Positions 2,299 to 24,010 of a DNA stretch of 64,000 bases are shown here, one piece after another (the first letter of the stretch is position 1; each line of letters opens with the position of its first letter). Source of the DNA: Bifidobacterium mellis. Its GTDB lineage: Bacteria > Actinomycetota > Actinomycetes > Actinomycetales > Bifidobacteriaceae. Where the stretch lies: positions 1,593,538 through 1,657,537 of the forward strand of contig NZ_KQ033885.1 in NCBI RefSeq assembly GCF_000967265.1, given 5' to 3'. Both the position numbers and the translations under genes were made by a program. Under the pieces are notes generated by a model that saw only the letters and a list, made by a program, of their open reading frames with translations, was not told where the DNA came from and made no database searches.

Positions 2299-5200
2299 GA
2301 ATCATTCCTGCAGATGCTGGGAACACCGATAGTATTTGTATACTCTTAAGAAGCCATGGTCCACTGCTTGGGATCATCCTCGCGGACGCAGGAAGCACTG
2401 GTCGGCTCCGGCCTTGGCAGCCTTCGAGTCAGGATCATCCCCGCGGATGCGAGGAGCACATGGGATAGGTAGGCAGCGACTCGTAAAACCAGGGATCATC
2501 CCCGCGGATACGGGGAGCACTCACTCACCCGAATACTGTTTTTGGCGGCCACAGGATCATCCCCGCGGATGCGGGGAGCACGTCCTGGAGGGCGACGGGT
2601 TCACCCGCATGCCCGGATCATCCCCGCAGATGCGGGGAGCACACTAGGGACAATGGCTAAAGCCAGCCAGCCAACGGATCATCCCAGCGGATGCGGGGAG
2701 CACGTGTACAGCTCATAGAGTGGTCGCCACAAGGTAGGATCATCCCCGCGGATGCGGGGAGCACAGCGACCCGCTGTTCTCCGACGGGGACTACAGGGGA
2801 TCATCCCCGCGGATGCGGGGAGCACGTATAGGTCCACAGTTTCACGACCTATACACAACGATCATCCCCGCGGACGCGGGGAGCACGACCCTGAATCGTT
2901 TCCATCCGTCGCCTGAAGGGGATCATCCCCGCGGATGCGGGGAGCACCTCGCCCTTGTCGCCCTTGTCGCCTTTCACGCCGGATCATCCCCGCGGATGCG
3001 GGAAGCACGCGACGACGATATCAGCCCCGGTGGTGGTCACAGAATCATCCCCGCGGATGCGGGGAGCACACCAATGGCACTGGCACCATAGCCACCAGTC
3101 AGGGATCATCCCCGCGGATGCGGGGAGCACTTTATCAGGCATTGGCGCGTCCCCTCTTCGTGAGGATAATCCCCGCGGATGCGGGGAGCACTTTTCGGCC
3201 GCTTCAAGAGTCTTAAAACGACCAGGATCATCCCCGCGGACGCGGGGAGCACGGGTAGAACAATTACGTTGCCGGTGTAGAACAAGGATCATCCCCGCGG
3301 ATGCGGGGAGCACGGGTTTATTTCATTGGGGAGCGCGTTGGCTATGGGATCATCCCCGCGGATGCGGGGAGCACACGGAGTGGCCCAGCGACGCAGCCGT
3401 GTCTACCGGATCATCCCCGCGGATGCGGGGAGCACGAAGACCGTCCCAGACGGTCGGAACGAGCGGAAGGATCATCCCCGCGGACGCGAGGAGCACACCC
3501 TGCAGTGAAGGAGAAACCGGCCGCCATAAGTATCATCCCCGCGGACGCGGGGAGCACACGTACCGCCAGCCGATGCGCAGGTCCTCCCGGGGACCATCCC
3601 CGCGGATGCAGGGAGCACGTCTCACCCGACCCGTCGCCGCCACAAAGGTCCGGATCATCCCCGCGGATGCGGGGAGCACTCAACAATCTTATCCGAAGTA
3701 ATATCCAGCAAAGGATCATCCCCGCGGATGCGGGGAGCACGGCAGCATGGAGACGATAAGCCCGTCGTTTTCAGGATCATCCCCGCGGATGCGGGGAGCA
3801 CTGGTCAATAGACAACCTACGGCTTGTGTGCCAAGGATCATCCCCGCGGATGCGGGGAGCACACCATTTTCAGACCCATCCAGTCCCTGCAGTACGGATC
3901 ATCCCCGCGGATGCGGGGAGCACTGTCCTGGTTGGCGCGCTCGCGGTTTGGGTTTGGGATCATCCCCGCGGATGCGGGGAGCACGGATAGAAAGGAAGAG
4001 GTTATGTGTAGTGGACGGGATCATCCCCGCGGATGCGGGGAGCACTGGTAGGTCGTTCAGGGCTGACACCGAACCAGAGGATCATCCCCGCGGATGCGGG
4101 GAGCACAGGCTGCGATGAGATTACGGACGCTCTTGGCAAGGATCATCCCCGCGGATGCGGGGAGCACTGTGATGGCTGATGGCCGGTTGTTTGATCTGTA
4201 GGATCATCCCCGCGGATGCGGGGAGCACCATGCCGGTCTTCCACAGGTTGATGCCGATGGGGGATCATCCCCGCGGATGCGGGGAGCACAGTGAGATAAG
4301 CCATCTCGAATACCGGATACAAGGATCATCCCCGCGGATGCGGGGAGCACCCAAATTCAGGCCGATGCCCAGCGCAGAGCCGAGGATCATCCCCGCGGAT
4401 GCGGGGAGCACCTCATGGTCTTTGGTGTCCTTTACTCATAGTCCGGATCATCCCCGCGGATGCGGGGAGCACGGGAAAATGCGGATCAGAAGCATCAAGC
4501 CTGAGGGATCATCCCCGCGGATGCGGGGAGCACCAGACTCTGCTTCGAAGGGGGGAGCTCTTTCCGGGATCATCCCCGCGGATGCGGGGAGCACTCCCCG
4601 TGCGAGCTTGACAACGCTCCCGGGACGGGGTCATCCCCGCGGATGCGGGGAGCACTCACAAATGGTACCCATGGTATGATCTCAACCGGGATCATCCCCG
4701 CGGATGCGGGGAGCACGCTATCCGCCTGTCTTTGCCAGTGTCTGTATCAGGATCATCCCCGCGGATGCGGGGAGCACTGGTCGTCACATGGGCCATGTTG
4801 TATTGGGCGCGGATCATCCCCGCGGATGCGGGGAGCACCACAGCTCGGCGCTTCGCTTCTGCCACCGTCCCGGATCATCCCCGCGGATGCGGGGAGCACC
4901 CGGTACCTATCGAGGTGATAACACCGGATATGGGATCATCCCCGCGGATGCGGGGAGCACTCCATGTAATTCGCGTGAACAGCCATGAGACCGGGATCAT
5001 CCCCGCGGATGCGGGGAGCACACTTCATTGATGAGTTCCCGGGCGCCCATGACGGGATCATCCCCGCGGATGCGGGGAGCACGAGGACTGGACGGCAAGC
5101 CACCCATGGCAGCCGGGATCATCCCCGCGGATGCGGGGAGCACCGCCCATGGACAATCGCCAAGGCTGTACGGTCGGGATCATCCCCGCGGATGCGGGGA

Positions 5201-7279
5201 GCACTGTCAGCGCTTCATCAAGTCTATTCAATCCGTAGGATCATCCCCGCGGATGCGGGGAGCACTCGATCCCACTGCCGGGAATCTCGAGCAAGCCAGG
5301 ATCATCCCCGCGGATGCGGGGAGCACCTAATTACCAGACCATGGGTATTGGCGCAACCAGGATCATCCCCGCGGATGCGGGGAGCACCACCGGCCAACCC
5401 TCTACCAGTGAACACACCAGGGATCATCCCCGCGGATGCGGGGAGCACTGTCCTCATCGTTGGTGTCGTCGTCGCCATCGGGGATCATCCCCGCGGATGC
5501 GGGGAGCACCTAATTACCAGACCATGGGTATTGGCGCAACCAGGATCATCCCCGCGGATGCGGGGAGCACGGAATGGGTTCCATGTCAGCTTGGCTATCT
5601 GGCGGATCATCCCCGCGGATGCGGGGAGCACGTGGCGATATGCAGATCGTCGGGCGCCTGTGGCGGATCATCCCCGCGGATGCGGGGAGCACCTACCTAC
5701 CGGGTTTGTCGTTTGACAAAGGTGGGGATCATCCCCGCGGATGCGGGGAGCACTGCGTCAGTCGTCATACCATGCGCCCTCGAGGAGGATCATCCCCGCG
5801 GATGCGGGGAGCACCCAGCCTTGGCCTGACGGGTCAGCGCGAACTGAGGATCATCCCCGCGGATGCGGGGAGCACCAGCAGCTACTTACTATGGCCGAGC
5901 AAGGTGGCAGGATCATCCCCGCGGATGCGGGGAGCACACATTCCCTTGGATAAGGGGCATGTGCCTGCGCGGATCATCCCCGCGGATGCGGGGAGCACTC
6001 TGGCATGCGAGCAACAAAATGCCGGAGAGCGGGATCATCCCCGCGGATGCGGGGAGCACTTGCCGACTACTATGACGTGCATAAGCAGACCGGGATCATC
6101 CCCGCGGATGCGGGGAGCACGGATGTAAACATTTTCTGGGGTGAAGAGGCCCAGGATCATCCCCGCGGATGCGGGGAGCACTTCCTCGTATGCCTTGCCT
6201 TCATCGTCCTCAAGGGATCATCCCCGCGGATGCGGGGAGCACCCTTAGATAACGTACAGTCTGAGTTACACCGGGGGATCATCCCCGCGGATGCGGGGAG
6301 CACCACAGCCCAGAGCCTCGAGTGTTCAGCTCATCAGGATCATCCCCGCGGATGCGGGGAGCACTCCTCCTCGGATTGCTCGGGTATCTCCTCCACGGGA
6401 TCATCCCCGCGGATGCGGGGAGCACGATGATGCCCACGGACCGGCTGGTCACTGTGCGGGATCATCCCCGCGGATGCGGGGAGCACCAGGAGCTGAGCAA
6501 CGTTATCGGCGGGCCGGAAGGATCATCCCCGCGGATGCGGGGAGCACTATTAACCGAGCAATTGGTCTTGCAAGAAGTAGGGATCATCCCCGCGGATGCG
6601 GGGAGCACCAGCTCCCCTATGATAAGGCACCGGATAACTGGGGATCATCCCCGCGGATGCGGGGAGCACCCGGTAAACGGCAGCACCATCCCCGGCTACC
6701 AGGGATCATCCCCGCGGATGCGGGGAGCACCACCGCGTCGGCCATGGAGTATGGGGACGTGGAGGATCATCCCCGCGGATGCGGGGAGCACCATGTGGTG
6801 CAGGATCCTTACGCGCAGTCGGCAGGATCATCCCCGCGGATGCGGGGAGCACTCCTGCAGTATCCTGGCCGCATCAGCCTTGTCCGGATCATCCCCGCGG
6901 ATGCGGGGAGCACGGGACGGCAGTGGGTCGGACCGGCGGTATCGGGGGATCATCCCCGCGGATGCGGGGAGCACCCGATCCAGGCCATGACCGGCACGGC
7001 CATGCTGGGATCATCCCCGCGGATGCGGGGAGCACTTGCACAAGCCGAGGACACTCGCGTAAAGGGGGGGATCATCCCCGCGGATGCGGGGAGCACTAAA
7101 CGTAGAGTCCAATGCTGATGTGACCGCAGGGATCATCCCCGCGGATGCGGGGAGCACACACTCACCCTATGCAGGCCTGATTTCGAACTGGGATCATCCC
7201 CGCGGATGCGGGGAGCACGTCATCCTCTATCCGCAAACCGGTGATAAGGAGGGATCATCCCCGCGGATGCGGGGAGCAC
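2299..7279 (-). CRISPR. Type I-E CRISPR array, about 82 repeats
   Basis: A 28-bp repeat (plus strand GGATCATCCCCGCGG then ATGCGGGGAGCAC) recurs with a period of 61, giving 33-nt spacers. Counting from 2493 in 61-nt steps to the last copy at 7252-7279, plus three leading copies at 2299, 2370 and 2432, gives about 82 repeats and 81 spacers. On the minus strand the repeat is a typical I-E palindrome: GTGCT, stem CCCCGC, loop ATCC, stem GCGGGG, then ATGATCC. The cas2 end is the leader side, so the array is read leftwards. Sequence-variant repeats cluster at the far (trailer) end, 2299 to about 3620, and the copy at 2299-2326 has six mismatches. From 3652 to 7279 the repeats are essentially identical, apart from one variant near 4629. 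Confidence 0.98.
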
Positions 7280-11492: not shown

Positions 11493-12248
11493 TCATTGAC
11501 CGTGCTGCTGGACCTCAGCTGTTCTCTTGGCCTTCTCACCCTCTTTCGTCTCCGCGGTCTTGTGCACGGCGTAATACTGACGAGCCCAACGGTGAAAGAC
11601 AGAGGCCCTCCGACCAGGCAGCTGCAACAGATAAAGATCCTGAGCGAAAGCCTGATAGTCCAGCTTCACATCCTGATTCCTCATCATCCTTATCAGCGAA
11701 TACAGCTGATGCCGGATGCCGTCGAAATCAGGAGCATCCTCCATGATTTGCAGCCTTCGAAGAACCGGGGTGGCCTTGGAACCGTCCTGGTCGGTGTCAA
11801 TCATGCGGCATACGTGGCCGAAACTGTAGCGGAAGCGCTCGGATCGCGCCCCCTGCTCAGCATCGGCGCTATTCCCTGTGCCCTTATGATCAGGCATCCA
11901 GGCCATACCCTGAGATTTCGACTGCTGATGAAGCGCATACATCTGCAAGGCAACAGCAATAGCCCGCGTTTCAGTGACGATATTGGGGTCGTTGTCAAGG
12001 GCTGGGTTTCCCAGGGTATCCTGTGGCCAATCCTCATATAGATCAAACCCGACATTCATCCACCGCACTCTGCCATCGTCAATGCCTCGGCGCAGCAAAG
12101 CCAGATGAGCCCTGGCCACGCTGCTGGCCTGAACCGTGTAGGCGTACTGCAATTTCCCGATCCGGTAGTTGGCATACCGCCCGACGGCCTGTTTGCGGTC
12201 GTCGACGGACAAAACATGCTCGTTCGTCATGGTGGCTGCAGTCATCAT
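11493..12248 (-). CDS. cse2: Cascade small subunit Cse2 (CasB)
   Basis: 251 residues, longer than the roughly 160 of E. coli, as is usual in actinobacteria. The core YRIGKLQYAYTVQASSVARAHLALLRRGI and the distal FRYSFGHVCRMIDTD plus LDYQAFAQDLYLLQ segments fit the Cse2 family. Two copies normally line the belly of Cascade and contact target DNA. The ATG at 12248 overlaps the cas8e stop (ATGA) and has AAAGGAGG just upstream. The last 25 residues are Lys/Glu-rich and probably disordered. Confidence 0.9.
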   Translation of the reverse strand: MMTAATMTNEHVLSVDDRKQAVGRYANYRIGKLQYAYTVQASSVARAHLALLRRGIDDGRVRWMNVGFDLYEDWPQDTLGNPALDNDPNIVTETRAIAVALQMYALHQQSKSQGMAWMPDHKGTGNSADAEQGARSERFRYSFGHVCRMIDTDQDGSKATPVLRRLQIMEDAPDFDGIRHQLYSLIRMMRNQDVKLDYQAFAQDLYLLQLPGRRASVFHRWARQYYAVHKTAETKEGEKAKRTAEVQQHGQ

Positions 12249-14002
12249 TGAACCTCCTTTTCATTTGCGGTCTCGCCCTCACGCGAGGGAAGAGGACCTA
12301 GATATTTATTCAATTGGCTTAGGAATCTATCGAAGATCTGCTCAGAAGATCGGGCACCATTGGCCTTGGGCAGGAAAGACGGCGCCGGAGATTGATCGCG
12401 GTACTCACTAGCCACCGCAATCAGATCCCGATGAATGGCCTGGAACCAGTCATTCCGGTAGCGTTCGATGTCTTCTGAAGGATCGAACTCCGCAATCCGC
12501 TGTCTGAACAGCTGATCAAGGGAAGCATATGCACGTTCCTTGACGCGGGCTACTGCGGCGTAGAAGCGGTCCTTCTGCGCTTTGTCGCCTGCGGATTGGT
12601 TCAACTGGGCAACCATGGAGTCCAACGCCTTGACGGAATCCTCAGTATGCTCAACAACCTGAACCACCACATCCACGGCAGGAGCATCCAAATGAAGCAG
12701 TTGAAGGTTTGCATCGAGTGAATCATCGATAGCATCCGAGAAGAAGCTGTTCTGCGGACCATAGATCATGCTCTGTGTATGGATGCGAGCCATTTGCATC
12801 ACTTTTCCGGACCCTGCATCATCCCGATTCCAATTCAACAGAGTTTCAACCCACCGAATAACACCAGGACGGGTGTCATCAGTCTGACCTGCTCCGTTGC
12901 TTCCCGCGCTGATCAAAGGTTGCAGCTGCCGCCAAATGGCCTTGTCGGAAGTGAATGTGACTGGCATGCGAGGCGCTGTCGGCAGTCCCAATTTCTTCCG
13001 CAGGTTCTCGCTGCCGTAACGCCAGGCCGTCATAGGCTCATAAGCGTCCATGTTGTCAGCGCTGATGACATCGCCATAGCAGACGACGATGCCGACCACA
13101 CGGGAACCTGAGTCGTCAGGCACCAGCCTTACCCTGCGTGATTGCAGAGTGAGCATGTCCACAATGCCCGTGGGTTGATAGTCAGGATCCATGTCAGGGC
13201 CGGCCGGCTCGCGCTCCCAGGGCGCCAAATCACCAGGCTTGCCGAACCAGATATCATCATCCCCACGGCCTCGGGGATTGATCAAGCACCAGTTGAGCAT
13301 CAGAGTGGCGAACAAGTTGTCCTGTTCCAAATAAACATTGCCCAAGGCGCCCAGCCAGCCGGTTCCCACCTTGGATTTGGGTGGATAAACCCTGTTGCGC
13401 AGAATATGGGTCTCCCCATCTACCGGCGATTTGATGCCTGCAGGGTCATAGGCCTGGAGAAAGACCAGCCATCGGGCGGCCTCAGGCAATGTAAGCGAGT
13501 CCAGGTCGTTCTTGGCACGCATGGAAAAGAGAAACTTCTTGGGCTTAGGCACGTCAGCCTGAAGTTCGCCAATGCTGTCATACTCTTTATCATCGGACGA
13601 GTAGGTCAATCCCGGCGTCTGATAAAAAGGATGCTCCGGGTTGAACAAATCAAACCGGTCGTGATAGCGCTCAAGGTAATCGTCAATTACTTGAGGGTCG
13701 AACTGCCCAGCCTGCCAAAGCGTCCACCACAGCTGCAGCAAAGCCGTCGGATTATCATCCCCGATCATGGGTTGATACCGCTGGGCATATGCCTGGTAGA
13801 GCACGGCTTCGACGGTTCTCAGGAGAGGCAAGGTCTGCTGAGGCATGTCACTTGAAATCTCACGGATTCGATGGGCCTCGACCAAAAGGTCACGCAGGGA
13901 GACCAGGCCGACGCGTCCTTTCAAGTATGTAACCCTGATCCAGGGTTGCTCCAAGAGATTGAACGACGGCCGACCTCCGCCGGTCGCTCCAACATCATTC
14001 AT
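12245..14002 (-). CDS. cas8e: Cascade large subunit Cas8e (Cse1, CasA)
   Basis: About 585 residues. The N-terminal FNLLEQPWIRVTYLKGRVGLVSLRDLL is the Cse1 signature; the central LPEAARWLVFLQAYDPAG and KVGTGWLGALGNVYLEQDNL regions are also typical. Cas8e recognises the PAM and recruits Cas3. AAAGGA lies 8 nt before the ATG at 14002; an ATG at 14008 is closer than ideal to that site. The downstream cse2 overlaps by 4 nt. I see no frameshift or missing core segment. Confidence 0.93.
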   Translation of the reverse strand: MNDVGATGGGRPSFNLLEQPWIRVTYLKGRVGLVSLRDLLVEAHRIREISSDMPQQTLPLLRTVEAVLYQAYAQRYQPMIGDDNPTALLQLWWTLWQAGQFDPQVIDDYLERYHDRFDLFNPEHPFYQTPGLTYSSDDKEYDSIGELQADVPKPKKFLFSMRAKNDLDSLTLPEAARWLVFLQAYDPAGIKSPVDGETHILRNRVYPPKSKVGTGWLGALGNVYLEQDNLFATLMLNWCLINPRGRGDDDIWFGKPGDLAPWEREPAGPDMDPDYQPTGIVDMLTLQSRRVRLVPDDSGSRVVGIVVCYGDVISADNMDAYEPMTAWRYGSENLRKKLGLPTAPRMPVTFTSDKAIWRQLQPLISAGSNGAGQTDDTRPGVIRWVETLLNWNRDDAGSGKVMQMARIHTQSMIYGPQNSFFSDAIDDSLDANLQLLHLDAPAVDVVVQVVEHTEDSVKALDSMVAQLNQSAGDKAQKDRFYAAVARVKERAYASLDQLFRQRIAEFDPSEDIERYRNDWFQAIHRDLIAVASEYRDQSPAPSFLPKANGARSSEQIFDRFLSQLNKYLGPLPSREGETANEKEVQ

Positions 14003-14074
14003 TATCATTGTCCTTTCTGCTTATTCGATTATTCATAAGTGGAAAATGCCTACACTAGCGAGGCATTGCAAAGT

Positions 14075-17000
14075 TCAGCTCTTTTCGTCCTCATCGGCTT
14101 TCACACAAGTAAGCCCATCCTCACGGGTGTATCCGATAAGGTAACCATGTACAGTGGTGACAAATCTCCGGCGACCCGAATCGGATTTTTCCTCTTCCAA
14201 GACCAAAGGTAAACAGCCATCCAGCCAAGGAGATTGATGCCATGCATCAACACAGTCACTGGCTCGGAGCTCTAGTTCATTGATCAGCGCATCAATGTCG
14301 TGACAGATGCGATCCGGCAGATTTACCGAGCAACGCAACACCACTTGCGCCAGCCGGTTTTCAGGTTCGGTTTTTGTGGGCACAGGAGCCCCGCAAGGTA
14401 CTGTATCGCTTCCGATCCATGGCAGAAGCGCATACTCATCACCGCACCGGCGCAGAAGCACCACCTCCACCGAATCATGAGTGTCTCTGACAACCTGTCT
14501 GGCTTTGGCTTCAGACCTGGAGTCCACAGTGCCTGTAAACAGGTCCACCAAGGTGTGAGACTGGTGCAGCAGACGGGCCGAATCTTTCATCAAATAGACT
14601 TGGGCCTTATCGATCTCTTCCGCATCCTTTTGGGCACGCTTGTGTACATCCAGCCGATACCGTTCTTGCCAAGCTTTGGGTATCAGCTGTGCAACTGCAT
14701 CAGAATCATAAGCTGTGCGAACCAGCGGAGCGATATCATCAGGAAGCTGCAGCAAGCGGTGGGCGCTGTCCCCCTGCAGTCCAAGCACAGCAAGGGCTTC
14801 AAGCAGGGATGCCGGTGGATAGACCCTGTCTATATAGTCAGGAAATTCCGGGCCATCCGCGTTCCAAGAGGCTATGCCCCGCAGATAGCAGAAGGCCTTC
14901 CGCAGACCAGCTGGACGGTTACGCCCACCTTGTCCACGGCGATGGCGATGCAAACGACCCATGCGCTGTAACAACAGATCGACCGGAGCTATATCGGTGA
15001 CCATAAGATCGAAGTCGATGTCCAGGGATTGCTCCAGAACCTGCGTGCCCACAACAATCAACCGGTGAGGACGTCCTCCATTGGCTAGGGTTGCATCCGG
15101 GCCAAGGCGTTCTCGGAGTTCTCGTTCGTTGTCCATACGATCCCGGTCGATGAAGCGTGAATGCGTCAGTCTGACCTGGTCCGGGCCAAATACATTGGTC
15201 AAAGCTGCTGCAGTTTGCTGGGCACGGTCTACGGTGTCGCAAATCACAGCGGCGCAGCCACCTTCAGCCAGACGCTCTTGCAGCAAGTCTGACAAATGTT
15301 CAAGATCGTCATCAATGACATGACAATCGATGTCTACCGCACGACCTGAAGGTCGCACCGAGCTGGTCCGGCAGGTCGTTCCAGATGTGTAGGTAATCAG
15401 CGGATAAGCATGCAGGTCGTCAGGGTCCTTTCCCTCATTAAAGGGCTGCCTGTCACCCGGCTGTGAAGAGTCAGAAGCCTTATCATTACGTTGCTTGGAG
15501 TAGCGGTCAGCAAATGCCTCCATGCTTGCAAAACAACGCGGTGCAACTTGGGGGGACTGCTCCGCATGGTTACTCGACCCGCCGAGCACCGAGGCATACC
15601 CCTTAATATAAGCGTCCACCAGCTCACGTCGCAGCGATGCAGGCAGGGTTGCCGACAGAAGGATGACTGGGTTGTGGAATCCTCCCAACCATTCCAGGGT
15701 CCTCTTGAGGTATTCACGCATGTAGGTGTCGTAAGCGTGGCATTCGTCGATGATGACAACTTTGTTGGCTAGAGCCAGCTGCCGCAGACTGACGTGCTTC
15801 ATCTGCAGGGCGGCCATGAGCACCTGATCGATAGTGCAGATCAGGAAGTTAGCCAGCACCCCTTTCTTCCTGCCTCTCAGCCAGTCATTCACCACTGCCT
15901 CGGGATAGACGGCCTTTTTTGCACCAGAGCCTTGGAGGACATCCTCATCGAAGACTGATGATGTGGCCGAACCCTCGGCTGAAGTCGCCATTGACATGAA
16001 TTCCCTGTTGAGAGCAGCTTTGCCATGTCTGAGCGAGGTGGATTTCTCAGAGCGTCCCTCAGGCTGAGGCAATCTATCGATCCAGCTCTTGCAACGCGAG
16101 AACATGGCATCGGTGGTGGCCATTGTCGGCAGGGCCACGCAGACTCCTCCCCGGCCTGTTCGTTCCGCCAGGATTTCCGCACAGGCCAGGGCTGCTTCGG
16201 TCTTGCCTTCGCCCATGGGCGCTTCGATGACCATAATGCCTGGATCCTTGGTCGTTTCCGCCAAATGTGCGGCCTGCTCCTGGACTGGTCTGGGATTGGC
16301 ACCTGCCGGCAGATCAAACCTGGAGGCGAAGCGCTCCCCTATGCTGATCTGCTCGTGAATCGGTTGCCACTTAGGAGGCAGATCGAGGTTACGCCATCCG
16401 CGCTCCTGACGTGCCTTAAGACCAGCTCTTGTACGTACTGAATTCATCCGGTCCCAGGTCTGTTCGTCATAGCTCTTAGGGTTGAGCGGCACCAAGGGAA
16501 ATAGAGCATCGTCGCTGTTGCTGGCGATCCAGTCGGCCATAATGACCAGCCCCTCCAGCACAGATTCGGCATATATGTTTAGACGCCTTCTGCTCAGCCG
16601 AGCGAAGTCATCATCACTGAGCTCACACTGCTTGGCCACGAATTCAATCAGTTGGCGCTGGACTTCAGCCCAGTCCTCATAACCCTGAGCAGTGCCCATC
16701 CGCACATCCATGTCGGACTTGCATAGAGCCTGACGCGTAGGAGGCTGACCATGATGCCCTCCAACGACACAGGCATAGGATTCGGCCACTGACTTGCTCC
16801 AATTCCGTACCTGCGTCAGATACGACTCCAGAATCCTTTGGCCCGCTATGGGATGGGTAGGATAATTGGTATCCGTAATCGGAACATCAGGGAACCGCAG
16901 ACCAGCCTGTCTGGGCTTCCACCGCAGGGAGAGATCCTGCATACCAGGCGCATGCGTCAACGGCTTGCTTTGGAAAACCGGGGTTGCCTTACCGATATCA

Positions 17001-17242
17001 TGGACACCGGTGATAAACATGCAGACTTTGCGAGCCAATTCCGGATCACCAACATCGCGGATGATGATCTCTCGGGTGCCCCGGGGCACCCAGTCACGCC
17101 AAAGATACCTAGCCACTGCAGCGGAATCGCTCAAATGCGCGAAAACCTGTAGCCAGTCATCCTCATTAAGCAGATTCGTCTTCCCCCACAGGGCCATGAC
17201 TTTAGCATTCAAGCCCAAATCCGTTGGTATCGCTCCGCTCAT
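14075..17242 (-). CDS. cas3: CRISPR-associated helicase-nuclease Cas3
   Basis: 1,055 residues, with HD nuclease then helicase domain. HDIGKATPVFQ at residues 81-91 and GGHHGQPP further on are metal-binding HD motifs. The helicase carries Walker A APMGEGKTEAAL near residue 340, the DEAD-box variant IIDECHAYD near 498, SATLP shortly after, and LIVVGTQVLEQSLDIDFD with LLQRMGRLHRH (motifs V and VI). Cas3 unwinds and degrades DNA bound by Cascade. It is the first gene of the operon, so the promoter region at 17,243-17,660 sets expression of the whole set. The putative -10/-35 and two orphan CRISPR repeats lie directly upstream. Confidence 0.96.
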   Translation of the reverse strand: MSGAIPTDLGLNAKVMALWGKTNLLNEDDWLQVFAHLSDSAAVARYLWRDWVPRGTREIIIRDVGDPELARKVCMFITGVHDIGKATPVFQSKPLTHAPGMQDLSLRWKPRQAGLRFPDVPITDTNYPTHPIAGQRILESYLTQVRNWSKSVAESYACVVGGHHGQPPTRQALCKSDMDVRMGTAQGYEDWAEVQRQLIEFVAKQCELSDDDFARLSRRRLNIYAESVLEGLVIMADWIASNSDDALFPLVPLNPKSYDEQTWDRMNSVRTRAGLKARQERGWRNLDLPPKWQPIHEQISIGERFASRFDLPAGANPRPVQEQAAHLAETTKDPGIMVIEAPMGEGKTEAALACAEILAERTGRGGVCVALPTMATTDAMFSRCKSWIDRLPQPEGRSEKSTSLRHGKAALNREFMSMATSAEGSATSSVFDEDVLQGSGAKKAVYPEAVVNDWLRGRKKGVLANFLICTIDQVLMAALQMKHVSLRQLALANKVVIIDECHAYDTYMREYLKRTLEWLGGFHNPVILLSATLPASLRRELVDAYIKGYASVLGGSSNHAEQSPQVAPRCFASMEAFADRYSKQRNDKASDSSQPGDRQPFNEGKDPDDLHAYPLITYTSGTTCRTSSVRPSGRAVDIDCHVIDDDLEHLSDLLQERLAEGGCAAVICDTVDRAQQTAAALTNVFGPDQVRLTHSRFIDRDRMDNERELRERLGPDATLANGGRPHRLIVVGTQVLEQSLDIDFDLMVTDIAPVDLLLQRMGRLHRHRRGQGGRNRPAGLRKAFCYLRGIASWNADGPEFPDYIDRVYPPASLLEALAVLGLQGDSAHRLLQLPDDIAPLVRTAYDSDAVAQLIPKAWQERYRLDVHKRAQKDAEEIDKAQVYLMKDSARLLHQSHTLVDLFTGTVDSRSEAKARQVVRDTHDSVEVVLLRRCGDEYALLPWIGSDTVPCGAPVPTKTEPENRLAQVVLRCSVNLPDRICHDIDALINELELRASDCVDAWHQSPWLDGCLPLVLEEEKSDSGRRRFVTTVHGYLIGYTREDGLTCVKADEDEKS

Positions 17243-17304
17243 TGTTTCCCCGTTCTCAGCTCAGTGACTCTGTCAGTTGGACAACTTCGTTGTAACAATT
17301 TTTA

Positions 17305-17334
17305 AGCATAGCACGTAGAAGTCAGATTTACCAA
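17305..17334 (-). promoter_or_regulatory. Putative promoter of the cas operon
   Basis: On the minus strand TTGGTA (17329-17334) and TATGCT (17305-17310) are separated by 18 nt and lie about 60 nt before the cas3 ATG, within an AT-rich stretch. The -35 is a moderate match and the -10 a good one to sigma-70-type elements. The position fits transcription of the whole operon. The placement was made by eye. Confidence 0.4.
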
Positions 17335-17364
17335 ATTCATAATTTCTTAATGACACAAGTTACT

Positions 17365-17441
17365 CTGTTTACCCTGACTACTCAGGGAGCACATAAAATC
17401 CTAATGACACAAAGGATCATCCCCACGGAAGCAGGGAACAA
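17365..17441 (-). CRISPR. Orphan two-repeat mini-CRISPR upstream of cas3
   Basis: Two repeat-like units on the minus strand. Repeat A (17441-17414) has 5 mismatches to the array repeat over 28 nt. Repeat B (17392-17365) matches at only about 15 of 28 positions, but it preserves the exact architecture: GTGCT, a 6-nt stem changed to CCCTGA, a 4-nt loop, the complementary stem TCAGGG, and a 7-nt tail. A 21-nt pseudo-spacer (17413-17393) separates them. A further hairpin (AGCCTC/GAGGCT, 17441-17457) precedes repeat A. The geometry resembles CreR-type cas-regulating guides. Confidence 0.6.
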
Positions 17442-17659
17442 GCCTCAAGAAGAGGCTGTATAAAGTCTACACGGGGGCCACAGTCAACCCTTAGAACGAC
17501 GCATGTAATACATAGTGCTGACTACATGTGAAACCTTGGGCACTGAATTCGATTTCACCACAGTCAGAATATCGCTCCACCTGCCGAGGACTTCCATTTG
17601 GCTGCCTAACGCGATAACCAGGAATCAACGCCACATGCGTCACATGGCATAACCTGATT

Positions 17660-20265: not shown

Positions 20266-20297
20266 ATTTCAATCCACGCCCCCATGAAAGGAGCGAC
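20266..20297 (-). repeat. Orphan type I-C-like CRISPR repeat
   Basis: A single 32-nt unit. On the minus strand it begins GTCGCTCCTTTCATGG and ends GTGGATTGAAAT, the general form of type I-C repeats (GTCGC...GCGTGGATTGAAAT) with a GCTCC/GGGGC stem. It is unrelated to the I-E repeat of the active array. No neighbouring copy exists one period away and no I-C cas gene is visible. Related units lie at 23,915 and 23,979. Confidence 0.6.
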
Positions 20298-23224: not shown

Positions 23225-23914
23225 AAAGCCGTTGGCTCGGTACAGAGCATAGCACACGGGCCCACCGGAACATGCAGCAAATTGGTCATCGCACGGTTTA
23301 ACTCGACAATAAACCTATGTAGACATCACCAGGCAGTACCCCCTGGGTGGCCTGGAAACATAGGCTGATTATCCCCCCCCCCCGCACACTCCGGTTTTTG
23401 TAAAGGCCACTATCTGCTAACCGCTCGATTTGATCGCCCAATCCGACGACATCAACAATCAGCACCTTCCTGCCTGCAGGAGTCCCGCCCACAGCATAAG
23501 GGGAGAATATCGGCGTGGCTATGGTAATCGAGCTTCTCGCCATGAGTATTATGGCAACGAACCTCAGCCGCAGGAATTCCGTAACAGCGACTACTAACAC
23601 TAACACTTCGCACGAGTAAGAGGCCGGACAACTCCCCCAAGACAAGTCCGGTCACTCGGGTGGCCCAGCAATAATCCCAAGTAAAACCTGGGCCACCCAT
23701 CTACTTTTTATACCTTTTCATGAACGGGGTCCAATCACAATCAAGCAGCACTGAAGCAACCCAATCCATAGGCAGCAGGGAAAGATACCAAAACCCGCTC
23801 TTCTTAATCGCTCTGATGCCGGATATAACCCGTATACCTATGTATGACTCTCTACGCTTGAGACATGAGGCAAAACGGGTGATCGTCATAGCCAAGTCTG
23901 ACGTACCCAGGGAC
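23225..23914. other. Decayed stretch between tRNA-Gly and the I-C-like repeats
   Basis: Two minus-strand frames (ending at 23298 and 23701) encode protein-like segments such as GRKVLIVDVVGLGDQIERL, but neither has a ribosome binding site and the first is crossed by a run of 11 C (23373-23383). Frames on either side of that run may once have been joined. I assign no gene. Confidence 0.3.
23373..23383. repeat. Homopolymer run of 11 C
   Basis: Eleven consecutive C on the plus strand, read as G11 on the minus strand inside a possible coding frame. Such tracts slip during replication and can switch frames, but here the surrounding frame is weak. It may equally be a sequencing-length ambiguity. 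Confidence 0.8.
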
Positions 23915-24010
23915 ATTTCATCCGCGTTCCCGTGAAGGAAGCAACACAAGACATGTTGTCGGGTTCAGACTTGGTTTTATTTCAATCCATGCTCCCGCGG
24001 AGGAAGCGAC
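23915..24010 (-). CRISPR. Two-repeat relic of a type I-C-like CRISPR array
   Basis: Two degenerate repeats of the ATTTCAATCCACGC...GCGAC type: 23915-23945 (31 nt, one base lost) and 23979-24010 (32 nt), separated by a 33-nt spacer (23946-23978). Repeat length, ends and spacer size all fit I-C. No further copies are found one period away on either side and no I-C cas gene is present, so it is a relic next to the fas terminator. Confidence 0.6.

What the first reader, a model, noticed from the sequence alone, without database searches (positions are those of the whole stretch)
17327..17457. CreR-like guide candidate: mini-CRISPR upstream of cas3 aimed at the cas promoter
Seen: two orphan repeats (17441-17414 and 17392-17365, minus strand) flank a 21-nt pseudo-spacer. 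Starting one nucleotide after repeat A, the pseudo-spacer matches 18 of the first 21 nt of the site 17358-17338; positions 1-11 match without a break and the first mismatch is position 12, one of the positions type I-E crRNAs leave flipped out. The site is preceded by AAC, compatible with an AA-containing I-E PAM, and a 32-nt footprint (17358-17327) would cover the predicted -35 TTGGTA. Known: CreR-type RNAs use degenerate repeats and short seed matches so that Cascade binds but does not cut, repressing cas genes. Inference: this operon represses itself through such an RNA. A caveat is that the seed identity could come from an old duplication of TTGTGTCATTA.
Basis: partly seen in the sequence, partly recalled or inferred. 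Interest (0 to 1): 0.9.

Follow-up and report, generated by a model that had tools for sequence, protein, structure and literature searches.

The report
Mini-CRISPR guide aimed at cas promoter
Just upstream of a bacterial CRISPR immune system lies a two-repeat mini-array whose short guide matches the promoter of that same system, and comparison with related bacteria strongly suggests that the immune complex uses it to turn its own genes down, a known kind of self-regulation with an unusually clear evolutionary record here.

Summary
[quoted passage not shown] Upstream of cas3 lie two degenerate repeats flanking one variable nucleotide and a 20-nt guide, then an AAC-flanked target at the cas3 promoter. 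Own genome and three relatives keep it. Guide and target vary little where half of the other columns vary. Target changes fall at positions 6, 12, 15 and 17: type I-E Cascade does not read 6 and 12, 15 is mismatched anyway, and 17 changes in the guide too. Five of 8 array protospacers in B. asteroides phages have an AA flank.

Guide-target pairs were found at 28 of 45 cas3-bearing family loci, plus 5 of 5 small-genome relatives. Over 27 pairs, match is near complete at positions 1-5 and 7-11, near background at 6, 12 and 18, and raised at most other positions up to 20. Chance, old duplication and a protein operator do not predict this. Transcription, Cas6e processing and repression were not testable here. 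CreR RNAs are already reported for type I-E, so this is a new member of a known kind. The near-constant 20-22-nt guide I found described nowhere, but the key papers could not be read.

The parts
17414..17441 (-). repeat A (psiR1-like): degenerate repeat, 6-bp stem, intact 5'-handle ATGATCC
   Evidence: 23 of 28 to the array repeat; stem pair counts over 12 elements
17413..17413 (-). variable nucleotide at guide position 0 (8th handle base, PAM-derived position)
   Evidence: T, C, G, C in four genomes, own included; array spacers' first base is C37, T31, G13 of 81, never A
17393..17412 (-). 20-nt guide TTGTGTCATTAGGATTTTAT
   Evidence: 1 of 20 positions variable in four genomes against 160 of 324 elsewhere; length from the second stem
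17365..17392 (-). repeat B (psiR2-like): perfect 6-bp stem with changed pairs, handle degenerate
   Evidence: 72 of 72 stem cells paired over 12 elements
17359..17361 (-). PAM AAC of the target
   Evidence: AAC in four genomes; AA flank in 5 of 8 protospacers
17339..17358 (-). target site at the cas3 promoter, 17 of 20 to the guide
   Evidence: the only masked-seed + AA site in the genome
17305..17313 (-). putative extended -10 (TGC-TATGCT) of the cas3 promoter; -35-like TTGGTA at 17334-17329
   Evidence: By eye, kept in four genomes; not found by the strict scan
17442..17456 (-). small hairpin GCCTC-TTCTT-GAGGC just upstream of repeat A
   Evidence: fold; present in four genomes, changed on both sides in G010 (by eye)
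14075..17242 (-). cas3
   Evidence: NCBIfam
12245..14008 (-). cas8e (casA/cse1)
   Evidence: TIGR02547
11493..12248 (-). cas11e (casB/cse2)
   Evidence: TIGR02548
10266..11402 (-). cas7e
   Evidence: TIGR01869
9550..10263 (-). cas5e
   Evidence: TIGR01868
8851..9540 (-). cas6e
   Evidence: TIGR01907
7868..8923 (-). cas1e
   Evidence: TIGR03638
7485..7868 (-). cas2e
   Evidence: TIGR01873
2299..7279 (-). CRISPR array, 82 repeats, 33-nt spacers in 79 of 81 intervals

Best explanation
The element encodes a CreR-type RNA. An RNA transcribed leftwards across 17.46-17.36 kb is cut by Cas6e in both degenerate repeats, giving a crRNA-like guide with an 8-nt handle (AUGAUCC+N), a 20-nt guide and the repeat B hairpin. 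Loaded into Cascade it binds the AAC-flanked site 17358-17339 immediately upstream of the cas3 promoter and hinders RNA polymerase, lowering expression of cas3 and the cas genes behind it. Pairing is broken at 12, 15 and 16 (position 6 matches here but Cascade does not read it) and the guide is 12 nt shorter than a normal spacer, so the bound complex should repress rather than cut. When ordinary crRNAs or an anti-CRISPR occupy Cascade, repression would ease. Shown: anatomy, PAM, conservation, covariation, recurrence at other loci. Inferred: transcription, processing (cut site recalled from E. coli), binding, repression, absence of cutting, feedback.
For: Complete I-E operon. Guide register and AA PAM fit protospacers in three B. 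asteroides phages: of 79 spacers of 33 nt, 8 have sites with at most 6 mismatches, flanks AA 5, AG 2, TA 1; reversed spacers gave none with 8 or fewer. AAC is a predicted I-E PAM in B. pseudocatenulatum (PMC7284854, passages). Asteroides clade: guide 1/20 variable, target 4/20, rest 160/324 (Fisher 4e-5 and 0.01); G011 has C at 17 in both. Search with one mismatch allowed anywhere in 11: 15 kept pairs from distinct systems, 7 of their 10 single mismatches at position 6 (p 5e-6). 27 pairs: positions 1-5 and 7-11 match in 23-27 of 27, positions 6, 12, 18 in 10, 8, 9; cross-pair background 0.24-0.40; 12+18 against the rest of 13-20, Fisher 9e-5. Five small-genome relatives: one perfect masked site each, and guide position 4 follows a TAT/TAC Tyr codon of cas3 in 5 of 5. 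Stems keep pairing through two-sided changes. Repeat A keeps its handle and repeat B loses it, as described for CreA (PMC9458426, passages). CreR in type I-E is stated in PMC13131331 (passage).
Against: No transcript data, and no consensus promoter found in 17.2-17.7 kb. The predicted fold also pairs the handle with part of the guide. The 20-nt guide does not reach the -35-like hexamer, and in G011 an 11-bp insertion moves the target one turn farther from the -10. L005/L006 keep repeat-like hairpins without a match, and 17 of 45 family loci gave no pair. In PMC10989794 (type I-B, passages) a 20-bp spacer left 44% or 65% of target mRNA, against about 9-13% or 10-29% for 21-24 bp. PMC5904413 (passages) says that promoter repression in E. 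coli drops strongly when as few as 6 PAM-distal bases are mismatched and that off-target Cascade binding did not affect transcription. The title of Kuznedelov 2016 (reference list) says shortened-spacer E. coli Cascades can still interfere. Pairs are not all independent: related species are included and L037 and L148 share one guide. In one search the number of pairs changed on both sides was reached by 180 of 500 shuffles.
Confidence: 0.87

Rival explanations
1. Old duplication: the guide and the promoter site are two copies of an ancient 20-bp direct repeat next to decayed CRISPR repeats, with no present function.
For: Guide and site are similar over the whole 20 nt, and L005/L006 look like decayed copies.
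Against: The match is kept while about half of the surrounding columns vary. Different loci hold different but matching seeds, with dips at 6, 12 and 18 that decay would not produce. Stems keep pairing through two-sided changes.
Confidence: 0.04
2. Protein operator: TTGTGNCATTA occurs twice because a transcription factor binds both copies in the cas3 promoter.
For: Direct repeats 54 bp apart are a usual operator layout; TTGTGA resembles half-sites of known factors (recalled).
Against: In one search, which asked for no handle, the hits that are not array or tandem repeats all begin one base after a repeat handle. The word differs between systems, and the target can be on the other strand or inside the end of cas3.
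Confidence: 0.02
3. Relic of a normal array, still making a crRNA, with no regulatory role or with a role against phage.
For: Repeats derive from array repeats; orphan repeats are common.
Against: Guide length is 20-22 nt in 24 of 27 pairs instead of 32, the guide is the least variable part of the element in the clade, and the only masked-seed + AA match in the genome is the cas3 promoter site. Phage collections were not searched with this guide.
Confidence: 0.04
4. CreTA/CrePA-like addiction: the guide represses a toxin gene rather than cas genes.
For: Same guide chemistry; in three relatives a mini-CRISPR lies before a Fic-like gene (one by Pfam; two by motif).
Against: In the window the site is followed directly by cas3. 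The only minus-strand ORF of 20 aa or more between them has 27 aa (17273-17356), starts upstream of the putative -10 and is interrupted in G007. A toxic RNA without an ORF was not excluded.
Confidence: 0.03

Closest known systems
CreR, cas-regulating RNAs (Liu et al. 2023; paper not held, known here from passages of PMC13131331 and PMC12737573)
   Same: crRNA-like RNA with partial complementarity to the cas promoter; autorepression reported for types I-B, I-E and V-A
   Different: Here the guide is 20 nt against 33-nt array intervals, and covariation over many species supports it; guide lengths of published I-E CreRs were not seen. RNA and repression not shown here
CreA of CreTA (Haloarcula type I-B; passages of PMC9458426 and PMC10989794)
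   Same: Two degenerate repeats, the first keeping the handle, the second the Cas6 part; 11-bp seed; repression without interference
   Different: CreA represses a toxin RNA; here the target is the cas3 promoter and the type is I-E
CrePA (review PMC12737573, passages)
   Same: crRNA-like RNA directs Cascade to a promoter
   Different: Represses a KilA-N toxin gene; no such gene between guide and cas3 in the window. Fic-like genes beside mini-CRISPRs were seen in relatives only
Natural single-guide RNA autoregulation of Cas9 (Workman 2021, title seen in a reference list)
   Same: CRISPR effector represses its own expression
   Different: Type II, single protein (recalled)
Racr RNAs (PMC10651486, passages)
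   Same: Solitary CRISPR-like repeats outside arrays
   Different: Phage-encoded inhibitors of Cas assembly, not host guides to a promoter

Membership tests
CreR | crRNA-like element (degenerate repeats flanking a pseudo-spacer) next to a cas operon | tested here: met
CreR | Limited complementarity to the cognate cas promoter, beside a usable PAM | tested here: met
   unique in the genome. The promoter itself is judged by eye
CreR | Guide and target co-vary (my own criterion, not a published one) | tested here: met
CreR | Transcribed and processed by the cognate Cas nuclease | not testable with these tools
   Stems and handle kept; no RNA data
CreR | Effector-dependent repression of cas genes without cleavage | not testable with these tools
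   None here
CrePA | Guide represses a linked protein toxin gene | tested here: not met
   Between target and cas3 only a 27-aa ORF, interrupted in a relative
CreTA | Guide represses a small toxic RNA | not testable with these tools
   The leader is about 60 nt; a toxic RNA cannot be ruled out from sequence
Ordinary CRISPR array | Repeat-spacer units of about 61 nt with near-identical repeats | tested here: not met
   49-nt unit; repeat A 23 of 28 to the array repeat, repeat B below the 17-of-28 listing limit

The most novel reading that the evidence does not exclude
Type I-E systems of Bifidobacteriaceae carry a distinct short-guide class of CreR: a hard-wired 20-22-nt guide that builds a smaller Cascade, pairs along its length in the five-plus-one rhythm of Cascade, and represses without cutting. 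The target has moved between the cas3 promoter and the cas3-cas8e junction, and in some species the same device also guards the promoter of a Fic-family gene.
Probability: 0.5. Interest if true: 0.72.

Novelty: new member of a known kind. Interest (0 to 1): 0.58.

Why it matters
It turns a single suspected CreR into a case that can be tested by sequence across a bacterial family of gut and bee symbionts. The 27 natural guide-target pairs act as an evolutionary readout of which guide positions a type I-E complex reads (6, 12 and 18 look free), and they suggest that nature keeps repression apart from cutting by shortening the guide. Knowing the native autorepression also matters to anyone using endogenous I-E systems of bifidobacteria for editing or silencing.

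Tried and rejected
Promoter geometry: the strict sigma-70 scan found no promoter, so the promoter is by eye. A 32-nt footprint was dropped because repeat B begins after 20 nt.

Outside the family: 67 of the 70 loci L043-L112 are not Bifidobacteriaceae; in their 600 nt upstream of cas3 the masked search gave only array or repeat sequence. Nothing else of those loci was searched for guides.

Family loci: the 45 were chosen for a cas3 match. Only the window was checked by HMM for the whole I-E gene set; four others show a cas8e-like ORF by eye, and some with short or distant cas3 may be other subtypes. Partial matches in G066 and G188 were not fetched.

L005/L006: repeat-like hairpins, guides differing at 5 of 20 between near-identical flanks, no masked match with AA flank in 19-23 kb. 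Taken as relics.

Rows dropped (23 of 41): repeat-to-repeat matches in L041 at 3207 (12), L042 (4), L055 at 17840 (2), L155 at 1723, L164 and L170 at 13999; a palindrome (L149 at 10567, mismatch at 6); and L150 at 759 (mismatch at 2, 5-bp stem, no second repeat seen). From I kept 8 of 25 loci by eye (hairpin, handle and second repeat present) and dropped the other hits. The mask 1-5,7-11 was imposed; the fair test of position 6 is. In one search G010 stands for the asteroides clade; with the window instead, position 6 would be 11 of 27. Guide lengths typed into for L055 and L153 (20) are not borne out: one search finds no clear second stem there. Searches used 12 of 15 elements then known (A without L004, L023, L128; B without L023, L128, L130). 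Repeat A was partly selected by its stem, repeat B was not. L129/L130 repeat A lacks one pair.

In one search one-mismatch sites were no more frequent than in the reversed control; only the perfect sites count.

Literature: Liu 2023, Shmakov 2023 and Kuznedelov 2016 are not held. The rows listed by searches showed no paper on CreR in Bifidobacterium; longer result lists were not seen.

Full report
System. The window (G000:C2:1593538-1657537) holds a complete type I-E operon on the minus strand, cas3-cas8e-cas11e-cas7e-cas5e-cas6e-cas1-cas2 (17242 down to 7485), followed by an array of 82 repeats (2299-7279).

The element. On the minus strand: hairpin 17456-17442, repeat A 17441-17414, one nucleotide 17413, guide 17412-17393, repeat B 17392-17365, AAC 17361-17359, target 17358-17339, cas3 ATG at 17242. 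Array spacers are 33 nt in 79 of 81 intervals, and their first base is C, T or G, never A (37, 31, 13). In three B. asteroides phages, 8 of the 79 spacers have sites with at most 6 mismatches; the two bases before position 0 are AA (5), AG (2) and TA (1), and reversed spacers gave nothing with 8 or fewer mismatches. So position 0 is the third PAM base, the guide starts at 17412, and AAC is a plausible PAM. PMC7284854 also predicts AAC for I-E in B. pseudocatenulatum (passages). The predicted RNA folds into the two repeat stems and the 5' hairpin, but also pairs the handle with part of the guide (z -3.9).

Near relatives. Nine of 27 genomes of the genus have a cas3 match. Four (own, G010, G007, G011; cas3 88-100% identical) keep the whole element. 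The guide varies at 1 of 20 columns (17), the target at 4 of 20 (6, 12, 15, 17), and the other columns of the 420-nt region outside the repeats at 160 of 324. Columns 6 and 12 are unread positions in type I-E (PMC5904413 on every sixth position), column 15 is mismatched in all four genomes, and at 17 G011 has C in both guide and target. Two more distant relatives (69%) have only decayed hairpins.

Family. A masked search (1-5, 7-11) with an AA flank over cas3 upstream regions, asking for no handle, found guides placed exactly behind a repeat handle in L001-L004 (L033 is G010 again), L027, L028 and L029; its other hits are array or tandem repeats. L124 and L031 followed at 9 of 10. In L027, L028, L124 and L031 guide and target differ between loci yet match within loci: own pairs score 10, 10, 9, 9 of 10, the 12 cross pairs 4-7, and the true pairing is the best of 24 permutations. 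In these four the target overlaps a -10-like hexamer (by eye).

In five small-genome relatives the target is not upstream of cas3. A genome pattern search found exactly one perfect masked site in each, near the 3' end of cas3 on the other strand, ahead of an ORF that looks like cas8e. Guide position 4 is A in the two genomes with TAT and G in the three with TAC at a Tyr codon of cas3. L023/L142 has a similar layout. An open search over 47 loci then found further pairs, several in the cas3-cas8e gap.

Fair test. With one mismatch allowed anywhere in the 11-nt seed, an AA flank and a distance up to 400 nt (L041 exempt), 1,649 non-array hairpin+handle sites in 45 loci were examined. Of 41 rows 18 were kept (dropped rows under Tried and rejected): 18 loci, 15 distinct systems. 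Five are perfect; of the 10 single mismatches, 7 are at position 6 and one each at 2, 3 and 5 (binomial 5e-6). Reversed guides gave 2 single-mismatch and no perfect hits. With L142, L172 and 8 of 25 remaining loci kept from a relaxed look, 28 of 45 loci have a pair, plus 5 of 5 small-genome relatives; 17 of 45 have none. Not every target is a cas promoter: in L171 one of two pairs, and in L155 the pair, lies before a Fic-like gene. I judged promoters by eye, and only at some loci.

Profile. Over 27 pairs (one per locus, the asteroides clade and the small-genome group once each, L171 twice; 26 distinct guides), matches at positions 1 to 20 are 27, 26, 25, 27, 26, 10, 27, 26, 23, 26, 26, 8, 20, 19, 13, 15, 17, 9, 15, 18. 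Cross-pair background is 0.24-0.40. Positions 12 and 18 together (17 of 54) are below the rest of 13-20 (117 of 189), Fisher 9e-5. Twelve of the 27 entered through masked or relaxed searches, which bears on position 6 but not on 12-20. In E. coli, off-target sites matched at position 6 in 45% (PMC5904413); here it is 10 of 27. By the position of the second stem, guide length is 20-22 nt in 24 of 27 pairs, 32 in one (L168), and unclear in two (L055, L153).

Repeats. Over 12 of the 15 elements then known, 97.2% (A) and 100% (B) of stem cells pair, with 9 and 10 two-sided cell changes, each reached by 0 of 500 shuffles; the number of pairs changed on both sides was reached by 4 (A) and 180 (B) of 500. 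The handle is kept in A and lost in B, the pattern described for CreA repeats (PMC9458426, passages).

Mechanism. Cascade can repress by occluding promoters, and an AAG PAM plus a few seed pairs suffice for binding in E. coli (PMC5904413). In Haloarcula I-B, spacers of 24 nt or less repress without interference, and CreA acts through an 11-bp seed; but a 20-bp spacer repressed less well than 21-24 bp (PMC10989794, passages). A 20-nt guide with breaks at 12, 15 and 16 therefore fits binding without cutting (inference). Weak points: partial pairing repressed poorly in the work cited by PMC5904413, the guide stops short of the -35, and there are no RNA data.

Known or new. CreR RNAs are reported for types I-B, I-E and V-A (PMC13131331, passage; the primary paper is not held). 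The element is thus a new member of a known kind. Its near-constant short guide and its covariation across species were not found in the papers seen, but the two key papers could not be read.

Noticed in passing
L171:12150-12226 and 12270-13496 (G151); also L155 near 14236 (G108) and L160 near 14098 (G044): A second mini-CRISPR after the cas genes in G151 has a 20-nt guide with a 10 of 10 masked match (AAA flank) just upstream of a Fic/DOC-family gene (PF02661). In G108 and, more weakly (8 of 10), G044 the mini-CRISPR lies upstream of an ORF with a Fic-like motif next to cas3. Possible Cascade-repressed Fic pair, like CrePA with another protein.
   Followed up: partly
window 20266-20297, 23914-23945, 23979-24010 (minus strand): Three degenerate repeats resembling a Bifidobacterium type I-C repeat (PMC4521832), two of them spaced 65 nt, although a type I-C cas1 model found nothing in the own genome. 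Remnant array or another orphan mini-CRISPR.
   Followed up: partly
window 17442-17456: Small hairpin just before repeat A, kept in four genomes with a both-side change in G010 (GCCTC/GAGGC to CCTG/CAGG); perhaps the 5' end of the guide RNA.
   Followed up: partly
window 17281-17293: Inverted repeat ACAAC-GAA-GTTGT in the cas3 leader, kept in three of four asteroides-group genomes and altered in G011.
   Followed up: no
L168 (G046) 13342: The one full-length (32-nt) guide among the measured pairs; its middle is itself a hairpin (CTCTCGATATTGAGAG), so it could be functionally short.
   Followed up: no
L143/L144 (G022, G020) upstream of cas3: Decayed mini-CRISPR with guides differing at 5 of 20 between nearly identical flanks; an apparent loss of the regulator.
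   Followed up: partly
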